Source of the DNA: Bacteroidia bacterium
GTDB taxonomy: Bacteria > Bacteroidota > Bacteroidia > Chitinophagales > UBA2359
Length of the DNA: 62,378 nucleotides
NCBI GenBank assembly: GCA_030427245.1
Contig: JAUHXA010000041.1
Coordinates: 1-62,378 of the forward strand
Direction of reading: 5' to 3'
Of this stretch, positions 25,588 through 32,836 are shown one piece after another. Position 1 is the first letter of the stretch; each line of letters begins with the position of its first letter. Below the pieces are notes generated by a model. The model made no database searches, was not told the origin of the DNA, and saw only the letters and a list, made by a program, of their open reading frames with translations. The translations under genes and the position numbers were made by a program.

Positions 25588-26865
25588 TTAGAACTGGGGC
25601 AACGCAAGACGCAACCCGAAGTGGGAGTAACGAGAGTAGGCATCTCCGCTGCCACGGAAAACAACACGGCAAAAGTAGTTATCATGACCGCACGAACCAC
25701 CCCTAACAAGTCGCCTATCTGTTCGAGGTTGGGCTTTCCAAGCCATACCATCACTAGGCGCACTTTCATAAGAACTGTGCCAGTCGTCTTCACACCATTC
25801 CCAAACATTTCCACTCATATCGTACAAACCCAATTCATTTGCCTTTTTTTCTCCAACGAGATGTGTTTTTCCGTCTGAATTATTTCCATACCAAGCTACT
25901 TCCTCTACATCATTGCTGCCCGCATATTCAAAACCTTTGCTTTTGATTCCTCCTCTTGCTGCAAATTCCCATTCTGCTTCACTCGGCAGTCGGAATTTTT
26001 TTCCTGTCAGTTCATTCAGTTTTTCGATAAATTCTTTAGCATCGTCCCAACTTACCGTTTCTACAGGACAATCCTCACAACCTATGAAGCGACTTGGATT
26101 ATTTCCCATGACTGCTTGCCATTGAGCTTGTGTGACAGGGTATTTTCCTATTTGAAAGGTGGGGACTGTTACTTTGTGGACAGGTTTTTCATCATCATGA
26201 CCTTTTTCAGAACCCATCATGAAAGTTCCTCCCTCTACCAAAACCATATCTTGCAGAATCTTTTGAATTTGAAGAGGGTATTCTGGATTTTTGATAATTT
26301 TTGGAGTGGGTCTTTGCAGTACTTTTGTAGGCGTTTTTTCTTGTGGTTGCATAGTTTCATCTTTCTTTTCTTCAATTGATGGTTTTGCTCTTTTAATTTT
26401 AACCGCCCTTATCCCTACTACCACTCTATGCAGCTCTTCCACCACATTGGTATAGGCTTCTGCATCATCTGACCAATGACTCAAAGGAATCCCATCTTTG
26501 GGAAGGGCTTGCAGTTCACTTAGTTCATCAAACAAACGCCAAGTACAATATCTCAAAATTACTGGAATCACCTTTGCTTCTCCTTTTTCGTGGCGTTGTA
26601 GGGCTTTCTGCATTTCTTCGTTGTAGAAGTAGTCAGAACTGAGCGAATTGGCGGTGATGAGTAGTAGAATAATGTCAGCAGCGTTGAGGTGCTGATTGAT
26701 TTCAACAGCCCATTTGGTGCCAGGTATGATTTCGCCATCATACCATATTTCAATCGTCTTCTTGCGGTTGAGTGGACGGAGGTATTTTTGCAGTTCCTTT
26801 AGATAGTCTGCATCCAACCGAGAATAAGCGATGAATATTTTGATGGGAGGAGTTTGTATTGCCAT
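25588..26865 (-). CDS. TIR domain - FGE-sulfatase (C-type-lectin fold) fusion with candidate DGR variable region
   Basis: 425 residues from 26865; the frame stays open for 54 more codons, but MAIQTPPIKIFIAYSR starts the TIR fold. TIR (about 7-150): IFIAYSRLDADYLKEL, IEIWYDGEIIPGTKW and SSDYFYNEE, whose Glu83/84 sits where the NADase glutamate lies in bacterial TIRs. A charged linker (about 155-200) leads to an FGE-sulfatase/SUMF1 domain (207-425): VEGGTFMMG, PVTQAQWQ, CPVETVSWDDA, FRLPSEAEWEFAARGG, GLYDMSGNVWEWCEDDW, RLVRGGS. Residues 393-416 then vary in the pattern of a DGR target and the protein ends FGLRLALPQF. A plausible reading is a sensor or immune effector whose ligand-binding face is diversified and whose TIR signals or depletes NAD+. 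Enzymatic FGE activity is unlikely to be the role. Flanked upstream by the nested palindromic element and downstream by the AAA/nuclease gene. Confidence 0.85.
   Translation of the reverse strand: MAIQTPPIKIFIAYSRLDADYLKELQKYLRPLNRKKTIEIWYDGEIIPGTKWAVEINQHLNAADIILLLITANSLSSDYFYNEEMQKALQRHEKGEAKVIPVILRYCTWRLFDELSELQALPKDGIPLSHWSDDAEAYTNVVEELHRVVVGIRAVKIKRAKPSIEEKKDETMQPQEKTPTKVLQRPTPKIIKNPEYPLQIQKILQDMVLVEGGTFMMGSEKGHDDEKPVHKVTVPTFQIGKYPVTQAQWQAVMGNNPSRFIGCEDCPVETVSWDDAKEFIEKLNELTGKKFRLPSEAEWEFAARGGIKSKGFEYAGSNDVEEVAWYGNNSDGKTHLVGEKKANELGLYDMSGNVWEWCEDDWHSSYESAPSDGMAWKAQPRTDRRLVRGGSCGHDNYFCRVVFRGSGDAYSRYSHFGLRLALPQF
25591..25689 (-). other. Candidate DGR variable region (VR) and adjacent constant block
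   Basis: Minus-strand codons 393-416 (25618-25689) read GGT CAT GAT AAC TAC TTT, TGC CGT GTT GTT TTC CGT, GGC AGC GGA GAT GCC TAC, TCT CGT TAC TCC CAC TTC. 23 of 24 end in C or T and most could come from AAC/AAT by changes at A only. This falls exactly where FGE-type DGR variable regions lie, between RGGS and GFRLAL. The next 27 bases (25591-25617), GGGTTGCGTCTTGCGTTGCC and beyond, have few A and resemble an initiation-of-mutagenic-homing site. The template repeat and reverse transcriptase were not seen in this window. Confidence 0.6.
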
Positions 26866-26872
26866 AATGTAG

Positions 26873-26880
26873 CAAATATA
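26873..26880 (-). promoter_or_regulatory. Candidate -7 box TATATTTG of the TIR-FGE gene
   Basis: Minus-strand TAnnTTTG match 8 bp upstream of the start at 26865, between the gene and the nested palindromic element. Transcription would start close to the ATG. Confidence 0.4.
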
Positions 26881-26911
26881 AAAAGATTTGGCTGATTCCA
26901 TCGCATCCACA

Positions 26912-27300
26912 CCATCAATAGCGAGAGGTTTGTAGTGTAGCAAATAAACAATTAATATTACTCTGCAAACTATGTACTTGTACGGTTTAACCCACCCCCT
27001 GCCCCTCCCAAGAGGGGATTTCTTCACTCTGTACGAGTATTACCCTCCTATTGATGTTCAAAAATTAATCGGGTAATATATTTCTTATCGCAGCACAGGG
27101 TTTAAACCCTGTGCTCCGATAAGCTGCGATAAGAACAAGACTAAAATTTGGAATTTCCAACCTTAATTGGATTACCCAAAATACCCGTTTATTTTTTGTA
27201 TCGTAATCGGAGGGGCAGGGGTGGGTTCCAATAGATGACTTGCCTACTTATGAATATTAAAAATTTATTTTCGGAGCTAGAAACCCCTCGTTATTGATGG
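26912..27300. mobile_element. Nested palindromic element: palindrome A split by element B, split by element C
   Basis: Layer A: 20-bp arms 26912-26931 and 27281-27300, complementary at 18 of 20 positions and similar to the palindrome at 27746-27793. Layer B: 26932-27049 plus 27208-27280, together 191 bp, matching the unsplit inverted copy of 193 bp at 29855-30047. Layer C: 27050-27207, 158 bp, inserted exactly at B's centre between CCTCCT and CGGAGG. All layers have inverted-repeat ends. None encodes a protein, and no target duplication is seen. The A-B-C nesting suggests non-autonomous elements that insert at the tips of hairpins. It lies 47 bp upstream of the TIR-FGE start. Confidence 0.8.
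27050..27207. mobile_element. 158-bp insertion (element C) with imperfect terminal inverted repeats
   Basis: Ends ATTGATGTTCAAAAATTAAT and the complement ATTACGATACAAAAAATAAA are similar over about 28 bp, both followed by CGGGTA. Inside is a nested hairpin at 27083-27134: arms TCTTATCGCAGC and GCTGCGATAAGA around the perfect 22-bp palindrome GCACAGGGTTT/AAACCCTGTGC at 27093-27114. No ORF. MITE-like or REP-like. Confidence 0.7.
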
Positions 27301-27311
27301 TATTCATGTGC

Positions 27312-27731
27312 TTATTCAATATTCCCCACCTCATCCATCTTCAAAAACGGATTAAAGGCAATCTCCCACAAATTCCCCTCAGAATCTGCAATATACCCAC
27401 TATAACCGCCCCAAAACGCCTTGTGAGGTTTTTTGACAATCCGCACACCCTTCGCTTCAAAATCGGCAAACAAATTATCTACTTCCTCTTCGGTTCGGGT
27501 ACAATATGCCATCGTAAAACCTTTGAAGCCATTTCCTGCGGCTTCGACTTCGGCATCTTCCGCCAATTTCTCTCTTGGATAGAGTGCCAATTGCAGCCCA
27601 TTCAATTGAAGGAAGGTGATACTCTCGCTGCTTTGCGGGCTTTTTGTCCAGCCAAACTTTTCGAGATAGAATCTTTCTGCTTCTTGCAGATTTTCAACGC
27701 CTAAGGTGATGATTGAGAGTCTTTGTTCCAT
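27312..27731 (-). CDS. VOC (glyoxalase/bleomycin-resistance fold) family protein
   Basis: 139 residues. Two beta-alpha-beta-beta-beta modules: LSIITLGVENLQEAERFYLEKFGW...FLQLNGLQLALYPR and GFTMAYCTRTEEEVDNLFADFEAKGVRIVKKP...YSGYIADSEGNLWEIAFNP. The final Glu in NLWEIAFNP is the usual metal ligand; His1 of the glyoxalase motif is replaced (SIITLGV), so glyoxalase I activity is doubtful. VOC members include dioxygenases, isomerases and drug-binding proteins, and substrate is unknown. The palindrome at 27746-27793 lies just before its start, between it and the symporter gene upstream. Confidence 0.88.
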   Translation of the reverse strand: MEQRLSIITLGVENLQEAERFYLEKFGWTKSPQSSESITFLQLNGLQLALYPREKLAEDAEVEAAGNGFKGFTMAYCTRTEEEVDNLFADFEAKGVRIVKKPHKAFWGGYSGYIADSEGNLWEIAFNPFLKMDEVGNIE

Positions 27732-29839: not shown

Positions 29840-30062
29840 AACAACGGCAGTCTTCTAGCTCCGCAAATAAGTTTTTAATATTCTTTTCCAAGTTGGCAAG
29901 TGATACGAGAACCCACCCCTACCCCCTCCGAGGAGGGGAATACTCGTACAGAGTGAAGAAATCCCCTCCTCGGAGGGGTTGGGGTGGGTTAAACCGTACA
30001 AGTACATAGTTTGCAGAGGAATATTAATTGTTTATTTGCTACACTACGAGACTACCGTTGTT
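29840..30062. mobile_element. Palindromic element B, unsplit inverted copy in a palindromic site
   Basis: Core 29855-30047 (193 bp) is the reverse complement of layer B at 26932-27280 with only scattered differences. Outer arms 29840-29854 (AACAACGGCAGTCTT) and 30048-30062 match each other at 13 of 15 positions but differ from the outer arms of the other copy. So B is again found at the centre of a palindrome, of different sequence. Within B, C/G-rich arms at 29910-29939 and 29962-29990 form a strong hairpin, and its ends (TAGCTCCGCAAATAA and TAGTGTAGCAAATAA) form imperfect inverted repeats. Confidence 0.8.
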
Positions 30063-32503: not shown

Positions 32504-32735
32504 CTTTTATTGAAGTTGTTTGTTTATTTTACAGGACAAGTAAAATATTTGCCCAATTTAACAATGTTATTGAAGTTTGTTTTGTTTTTGAGCGTCAAAC
32601 CCGATAAATATCCGAAACAAGTTTTGTACATTGCTTTGAATCTCGATGCATCAAAAAAGTTGAAGTTTTGCCAAGCAAATCTTTTTTACTATCAATAGGC
32701 ACATTATTTTCACAATGCCCTTTATATCAAACAAG
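32504..32735. other. Intergenic DNA upstream of the P450 gene
   Basis: The 332-bp gap between the divergent P450 and SRPBCC genes. The left part, given here, has no clear signal; the right part is repeat copy 2. Confidence 0.5.
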
Positions 32736-32836
32736 ATGAAATGTCCATGATTAAATAATTATTAAAACACAAAGAGAAATGATTATTTAATTCATGGTAA
32801 GTTCCATCTGACCTTCAAAAAACGAAAATAAACAGA
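32736..32836. repeat. Dispersed hairpin repeat, copy 2
   Basis: Inverted copy of 132-234. Imperfect hairpin with arms near 32745-32763 (CCATGATTAAATAATTATT) and 32778-32797 (AATGATTATTTAATTCATGG), loop AAAACACAAAGAG. It runs right up to the ATG of the SRPBCC gene, so it forms that gene's whole immediate leader. Confidence 0.7.

What the first reader, a model, noticed from the sequence alone, without database searches (positions are those of the whole stretch)
26912..27300. Three-layer nested palindromic elements: each inserted at the centre of the last
Palindrome A (arms 26912-26931 / 27281-27300) is opened at its centre by element B (191 bp, defined by the unsplit 193-bp copy at 29855-30047), and B is opened exactly at its central CCTCCT|CGGAGG by element C (158 bp). 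C in turn contains a palindrome inside a palindrome (27083-27134). No target duplication is visible. Known: a few transposon classes (some IS110-like and REP/IS200-like systems, group IIC introns) target hairpins. Inferred: non-autonomous elements mobilised in trans that home to hairpin tips, building Russian-doll structures.
Basis: seen in the sequence. Interest (0 to 1): 0.8.

Follow-up and report, generated by a model that had tools for sequence, protein, structure and literature searches.

The report
Mobile hairpins nested at hairpin tips
Short mobile DNA pieces in this bacterium have repeatedly landed at the tips of DNA hairpins, apparently without copying any target bases, and because each piece is itself a hairpin they stack inside one another like Russian dolls.

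Summary
B is one of 8 complete genomic copies of an element with ends TAG...CTA. C belongs to an unrelated family, D, with 11 two-ended copies. 8 of 8 B and 8 of 11 D copies have flanking inverted arms (intergenic background p about 2e-13 and 3e-9). B junctions lie 0-0.5 nt from the dyad in 8 of 8. Paralogous empty palindromes were found for 6 of 19 insertions; 5 align without a gap across the junction. Two ordinary MITE families in the same genome show 7-9 bp duplications and no comparable arms. Arms differ between most sites, so structure rather than sequence seems to be read. The locus has about five layers: A > X arms > G core > D/C > P. Correction: C sits at the tip of a sub-hairpin of B, not at B's centre. 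No mobilising enzyme was found with five transposase models. The nearest precedent, IS1272/TnSha1 (IS1182 family), inserts blunt into hairpins, but in the stem and with deletion. New variant of a known kind; mechanism inferred.

The parts
26912..26932 (.). left arm of outer palindrome A
   Evidence: pairs with 27280-27300; insertion at the dyad, offset 0
27280..27300 (.). right arm of outer palindrome A, about 12 bp past the end of the 139-aa ORF 27312-27731 (-)
26933..27279 (-). element B (X arms plus G core) carrying C; TAG...CTA ends
   Evidence: one of 8 complete copies in the genome
26933..26988 (-). X arm of B (TAGTGTAGCAAATAAACAATTAATATT side)
27228..27279 (-). X arm of B (TAGCTCCGAAAATAAATTTTTAATATT side, read on the minus strand)
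26989..27049 (-). G core, first part (AACCCACCCC...CCCTCCT), split by C
   Evidence: the core also occurs outside X elsewhere in the genome
27208..27227 (-). G core, last part (CGGAGGGGCAGGGGTGGGTT)
27050..27207 (+). element C, 158 bp, member of family D (ends ATTGATGTTCAAAAATTAATCGGGTA / TACCCGTTTATTTTTTGTATCGTAAT); inserted at the apex of hairpin CCCTCCT|CGGAGGG of B
   Evidence: ungapped empty site in other B copies
27084..27123 (.). palindrome P (CTTATCGCAGCACAGGGTTT|AAACCCTGTGCTCCGATAAG) inside C; a dispersed 40-bp palindrome, elsewhere a target of B and D
29841..29855 (.). left arm of the palindrome around the second B copy (ACAACGGCAGTCTTC)
29856..30046 (+). second B copy, uninterrupted (191 bp): X arm 29856-29909, G core 29910-29990, X arm 29991-30046
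30047..30061 (.). right arm of the palindrome around the second B copy (CGAGACTACCGTTGT)
32734..32783 (+). uninterrupted relative of the palindrome hit by the D copy on contig C129 (paralogous empty site within this window)
   Evidence: 50 bp ungapped, 88% identity to the joined flanks

Best explanation
B and C are non-autonomous, MITE-like palindromic elements of two unrelated families. They insert at the apex of pre-existing DNA hairpins or cruciforms by a blunt, duplication-free reaction that reads structure rather than sequence. Shown: shared precise ends, copies at many different palindromes, dyad-centred junctions, no target duplication, and uninterrupted paralogous palindromes. Inferred: extrusion of the target as a hairpin or cruciform; cleavage at the apex by a transposase supplied in trans, acting like the IS1182-family element IS1272 although not shown to be one and possibly lost from this genome; and joining of the element's ends to the opened apex. 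Because each element has inverted ends and a palindromic core, every insertion lengthens the stem and presents a new apex, so dolls build up: A > X > G core > D/C > P.
For: Flank-palindrome scores: 8 of 8 B copies at >=14 and 8 of 11 D copies at >=12, where 2.5% and 4.6% of 15,000 random intergenic points reach those scores (binomial p 1.7e-13 and 2.9e-9; thresholds set at the lowest passing copy, copies taken as independent). Junction 0 or 0.5 nt off the dyad for 8 of 8 B copies; for the 8 passing D copies 0 in six, 0.5 and 1 nt in the others (B_C99 rests on a weak ungapped diagonal, score 10). Empty paralogous palindromes for 6 of 19 copies, 5 with ungapped matches, one with a 1-nt gap. P is hit by D at C55 and C18 and by B at C173, while 7 free-standing P copies are uninterrupted. 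Control MITEs: E, 6 distinct copies with 7-9 bp direct repeats and palindrome scores 2-7; F, 2 distinct copies with 7-8 bp repeats and scores 4-9 (12% of intergenic points reach 9). None of 19 copies is spanned by a called ORF. IS1272/TnSha1 precedent: PMC4923244, passages read.
Against: No transposase with these ends was found, and many transposase families were not searched. D copies C84, C14 and C130 do not have two pairing arms (scores 5, 3, 9). Some passing copies are weak alone: C in B and C79 score 12, B_C97 14. IS1272 cuts in the stem with deletion; here the apex is opened without loss. Empty sites are paralogous, not orthologous, and 13 of 19 copies gave none. Copies and arms have diverged, so no ongoing movement is shown.
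Confidence: 0.62

Rival explanations
1. Ordinary MITEs moved by a DDE transposase with a 2-bp TA (or AT) duplication, whose preferred target happens to be AT-rich and symmetric.
For: B starts TAG and ends CTA in 8 of 8 copies, so a TA duplication is formally possible for B; most free P copies have TA at the dyad.
Against: Empty sites for B_C47 (CGTTTTA|GTAAAACG), D_C129 and C-in-B align ungapped with no TA to spare at symmetric ends. D_C144 (GTTTC|ATTG..CAAT|GAAAC) has no TA. A 2-bp preference would not select arms of 7-20 bp.
Confidence: 0.1
2. Single-strand (IS200/IS605-like) transposition by the RAYT-like gene at C78:90019, acting on hairpins in lagging-strand DNA.
For: One Y1 transposase gene is present, classed IS200/IS605 family (65.9 bits, cut-off 55), followed by tandem repeats with short GTAGG...CCTAC motifs. 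Such systems make no duplication (recalled).
Against: IS605-type insertion needs a fixed short sequence 5' of the element (recalled); the bases flanking B and D vary widely (read). B and D have inverted ends, the gene's repeats do not resemble P, A or the B and D ends (read by eye), and no B- or D-end match lies near it.
Confidence: 0.08
3. Capture without a dedicated transposase: a host hairpin nuclease (SbcCD-like) opens cruciform tips and loose palindromic fragments are joined in by end joining.
For: Explains insertion at the apex, blunt joints and two unrelated families with one target habit; hairpin cleavage by SbcCD is recalled, not tested here.
Against: Captured fragments should have ragged ends; B and D copies share precise ends. 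5 of 6 empty sites show no loss.
Confidence: 0.1
4. Palindrome growth by replication slippage or template switching at hairpins rather than insertion.
For: 10-bp duplications next to P inside the D copies at C124 and C130 look like slippage (by eye).
Against: The inserts are dispersed families with fixed ends found at unrelated palindromes, with uninterrupted versions elsewhere.
Confidence: 0.05
5. Assembly artefact or chance.
For: Draft assembly of 187 contigs.
Against: Many arms are diverged, not perfect mirror copies; many loci agree; background is low. In the 1.26-Mb sample 59 palindromes with spacer up to 10 and score 28 or more were found against 0 after one block shuffle.
Confidence: 0.02

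Closest known systems
IS1272 / TnSha1 (IS1182 family), PMC4923244
   Same: Targets hairpins with no primary sequence consensus, blunt joints, no target duplication; hairpins A-E of seven were confirmed as terminators (passages read).
   Different: TnSha1 cuts in the stem and deletes part of the target, and carries a transposase. Here insertion is at the apex without loss in 5 of 6 testable cases, the inserts are about 150-290 bp with no transposase, and no IS1182 transposase over cut-off is in the genome.
REP-targeting insertion sequences (ISPsy8, ISPa11, ISPpu9/10, IS621, IS1397), PMC1525189
   Same: ISPsy8 inserts at the symmetry axis of a REP hairpin (passage read).
   Different: Their target is the host's REP sequence, and ISPsy8 leaves a 3-bp repeat; here target sequences vary, there is no repeat, and the inserts are MITE-sized.
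Classical prokaryotic MITEs (passages of review PMC10969869)
   Same: Short, inverted ends, multicopy, intergenic.
   Different: Families E and F in this genome show 7-9 bp duplications; B and D show none and sit at dyads.
REP/RAYT (IS200-like) systems
   Same: A RAYT-like gene with neighbouring repeats exists here; no duplication expected (recalled).
   Different: Ends, target flanks and repeat sequences do not match (read by eye).

Membership tests
IS1182 / IS1272-like | IS1182-type DDE transposase in the genome | tested here: not met
   NF033551: best 29.6 bits against cut-off 270, and that protein is IS1634 family (396.8 bits, cut-off 100); PF05598: no match. A lost or distant source cannot be excluded.
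IS1182 / IS1272-like | hairpin targets without target duplication | tested here: met
   8 of 8 B and 8 of 11 D with arms; 0 of 19 with a convincing direct repeat. Lack of sequence consensus was read by eye.
IS1182 / IS1272-like | cut in the stem with deletion of part of the hairpin | tested here: not met
   5 of 6 empty sites ungapped, the sixth differs by 1 nt; junction at the dyad
IS110/IS1111 (bridge RNA) | Transposase_20 domain of the DEDD recombinase | tested here: not met
   PF02371: 0 matches in G000, found in 4 of 14 control genomes; PF01548 not searched
IS200/IS605 and RAYT | Y1 transposase present | tested here: met
   one gene, C78:90019-90357
IS200/IS605 and RAYT | fixed short sequence 5' of insertions | tested here: not met
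   flank bases vary, read from the listing; no formal test
MITE with inverted ends and duplication | terminal inverted repeats, multicopy, short | tested here: met
MITE with inverted ends and duplication | target site duplication | tested here: not met
   0 of 19 B and D copies; 6 of 6 E and 2 of 2 F controls have one
Group II (IIC) introns | intron ribozyme and reverse transcriptase | not tested
   no search run; at 147-284 bp (191 for B) the elements look too short for a complete intron (recalled)

The most novel reading that the evidence does not exclude
An undescribed apex-reading recombinase or transposase joins unrelated palindromic elements bluntly to opened hairpin tips, choosing targets purely by structure. 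Since every insert brings its own apex, the reaction is self-renewing and builds hairpins layer by layer.
Probability: 0.3. Interest if true: 0.78.

Novelty: new variant of a known kind. Interest (0 to 1): 0.6.

Why it matters
Structure-directed insertion is known from a few insertion sequences. Here two unrelated small element families in one genome share an apex-centred habit without duplication, with paralogous empty sites and in-genome negative controls. It offers a natural test of whether hairpins or cruciforms extrude in living cells, and a route by which long bacterial hairpins can grow stepwise.

Tried and rejected
Rejected: a TA duplication (empty sites); IS110 by its Transposase_20 domain; a present IS1182 transposase over cut-off; the ~1.24-kb element at C78:87971-89208 as the source (ends CCGAGAACTCGC..., flanks not palindromic). 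For the DDE_Tnp_1 matches at C146, C145 and C78:88431 and the Y1 gene at C78:90019, no B- or D-end pattern match lies on C145 or C146, and those on C78 are at 2889 and 10441. No two end matches lie 0.3-5 kb apart as an autonomous copy would show, except the two B copies of this window (the A-locus copy with C inside, and the two copies relative to each other).

Led nowhere: the D-end pattern in genome contigs gave one hit, a Treponema MAG, where the 200 bp read showed no further D-like sequence; records of the window's own genome may be left out of that scan. One B-end pattern in 396 genomes of the order (G000 included) hit only G000. A DNA search of 60 genomes (G000 plus 59 relatives) matched 7 relatives, only within bases 49-141 of B, around the core; 18 of those loci were read for their surroundings. 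A plasmid search with D gave no match; with B, one 31-bp core match on a Nostoc plasmid. The host could not be named.

Rows dropped: the degenerate ninth B copy at C78:10441 (right end not delimited); one-ended D remnants at C123, C39:141804, C75, C78:2889 and the outer left end at C130:8811; eight further single D-end matches (C21, C26, C39:57410, C45, C71, C84:31730, C95, C106), read and treated as chance, although the reversed-pattern control gave only 3 matches, so a few may be remnants; and nine B-end matches with 2-3 mismatches (control 6), not read. F controls were printed in both orientations and are counted once. Element Y at C26 was not counted: it lies between inverted arms, but with 24 extra bases on one side.

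Full report
Where it lies. The window is contig C124 of an unnamed 7.58-Mb draft genome in 187 contigs. A protein tail at L176 looks like a type IX secretion sorting domain, which would point to Bacteroidota; that is recalled, not tested. None of the 59 relatives searched is of the same genus.

The observation. Palindrome A (26912-26932 / 27280-27300), B (26933-27279 here; 29856-30046 unsplit) and C (27050-27207) are all present. The joined flanks of C align ungapped over 50 bases with three other B copies, at 96, 94 and 86%. C sits at base 76/77 of the 193-base B query, at the apex of a sub-hairpin (CCTCCT|CGGAGG), not at the centre of B. The second B copy in the window is itself inside a palindrome (29841-29855 / 30047-30061).

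Two families. B has 8 complete copies in the genome and a ninth degenerate one. Its ends follow TAG....GCAAATAA....TTAATATT on both sides, imperfectly inverted. C belongs to a different family, D, with ends close to ATTGACGTTCAAAAATTAATCGGGTA. Eleven copies could be delimited at both ends, ten from the BLAST and pattern searches and one from the search for palindrome P. Their lengths are 147-284 bp. No longer element bounded by B or D ends showed up in the pattern searches.

Targets. Flanks of the 19 copies were scored for pairing within 4 nt of the junction. Against 15,000 random intergenic points of a 1.26-Mb sample, B copies score >=14 in 8 of 8 (background 2.5%) and D copies >=12 in 8 of 11 (background 4.6%), giving binomial p of 1.7e-13 and 2.9e-9. 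The thresholds are the lowest passing copy, copies are treated as independent, and P accounts for three of the passing targets (D_C55, D_C18, B_C173). Eight of eight B junctions lie 0 or 0.5 nt from the dyad, B_C99 on a weak ungapped diagonal; of the eight passing D copies six lie at 0, one at 0.5 and one at 1 nt. The three D failures look like copies with one flank exchanged or lost: C130 has a half of P on its left and, on its right, an arm matching the left flank of the one-ended copy at C39; C14 has half of P on its right; C84 has on its right an arm resembling a hairpin on contig C80. That reading is inference.

No duplication. Joining each pair of flanks and searching the held DNA gave a junction-spanning paralogous empty site for 6 of 19 copies. 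D_C55 matches P 39/39. D_C18 matches P ungapped over 47 bp (89%). C matches other B copies as above. D_C129 matches window 32734-32783 ungapped over 50 bp (88%); one of its three matches has a gap. B_C47 matches C173:42474 ungapped over 31 bp (97%). B_C173 matches P only with a 1-nt gap. The other 13 gave none. No copy has a convincing direct repeat. Two other MITE families in the same genome behave conventionally: E (133 bp, 6 distinct copies, 7-9 bp repeats, palindrome scores 2-7) and F (222 bp, 2 distinct copies, 7-8 bp repeats, scores 4-9). So the method does not find palindromes everywhere.

More layers. B is composite: the 81-bp G core (AACCCACCCC...GGGGTGGGTT) lies between X arms of 54 and 56 bp. 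The core also occurs outside X, for example at C26:118055 between the arms of another outer element, Y (about 30 and 29 bp). Y lies between inverted arms too, but with 24 extra bases on one side, so it is not exactly centred as it stands. No X or Y without the core was found in the held sequence listed. P is a dispersed 40-bp palindrome: seven free-standing uninterrupted copies were read, and it lies inside C and inside the D copy at C14. The H core seen by eye in many D copies occurs at 11 places in the sample; two lie in D copies by position (C55:110593, C78:2797), none passed my strict end pattern, so the share outside D is not firmly counted. The A locus therefore reads A > X > G > D/C > P; that X received G, and D received P, as separate insertions is inferred. 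It folds as one long hairpin as single-stranded DNA (z -9.6).

Context. None of the 19 copies is spanned by a called ORF (90 aa or more), but the listed ORF 25588-27027 reads into B at the A locus. A gene 3' end borders 15 of 19; B_C97 and D_C84 lie between two 5' ends, and two have one side unresolved (simple ORF calling, not gene prediction; C and the B around it are one locus). A lies about 12 bp past the end of the 27312-27731 ORF. Whether the targets are terminators was not tested.

Search for the enzyme. In G000: IS1182 model, nothing over cut-off; Transposase_20, none; DUF772, none; Y1, one gene, IS200 family, followed by about 89-bp tandem repeats with short GTAGG...CCTAC motifs seen by eye (the repeat tool listed no inverted pair there); DDE_Tnp_1, three matches: an IS1634-type gene at C146, a decayed one at C145, one at C78:88431. 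None lies near a B- or D-end match. Other transposase families and introns were not searched, so the enzyme may be in an unsearched class.

Literature. PMC1525189 (passages): ISPsy8 inserts at the symmetry axis of a REP hairpin with a 3-bp repeat. PMC10969869 (passages): a MITE review whose main text has no 'hairpin', 'nested' or 'Bacteroid'. PMC9587614 (passages) was not relevant. Seven searches listed no paper that, by title and the abstract start shown, describes MITEs nested at palindrome apices in bacteria; one listed paper concerns palindromes as targets of nested plant LTR retrotransposons (PMC6911290, listing only). The library is open-access, so this is weak evidence of absence.

Verdict. 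Apex-centred, duplication-free insertion of two small element families is well supported. Structure rather than sequence as the target is likely. The enzyme and chemistry are unknown.

Noticed in passing
C173:3736-3874, C26:131345-131479, C39:18310-18442, C55:99961-100093 and copies in L099, L115: MITE family E, 133 bp, ends CATACTACTGTACA, with 7-9 bp target duplications.
   Followed up: partly
C26:125-351 and C31:152648-152874: MITE family F, 222 bp (GTGCYTGAACGGAAAC ends), 7-8 bp duplications.
   Followed up: partly
L247 (C78:90019-90357 and the 300 bp after it): IS200/RAYT-like gene followed by about 89-bp tandem units with short GTAGG...CCTAC motifs.
   Followed up: partly
C78:87971-89208: About 1.24-kb element with inverted ends CCGAGAACTCGCATTTG... 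and a DDE_Tnp_1 match; flanks not palindromic.
   Followed up: partly
C26:117982-118186: A different outer element (Y) around the same G core, between inverted arms with 24 extra bases on one side: possibly another doll.
   Followed up: partly
C55:16598-16741 and C173:30431-30618: Further nested inverted repeats (outer arms 21 and 14 bp) of unknown origin.
   Followed up: no
L071-L094 (relatives) and Nostoc plasmid NZ_AP017296: The CCCACCCCTNNCCCCTCC...GGAGGGG core, or half of it, recurs in other genomes of the family and order, and as a 31-bp match on a cyanobacterial plasmid.
   Followed up: partly
window 25588-27027: The listed ORF reads into the doll; by eye the real start is probably the ATG at 26865, the N-terminal extension being element sequence.
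   Followed up: no
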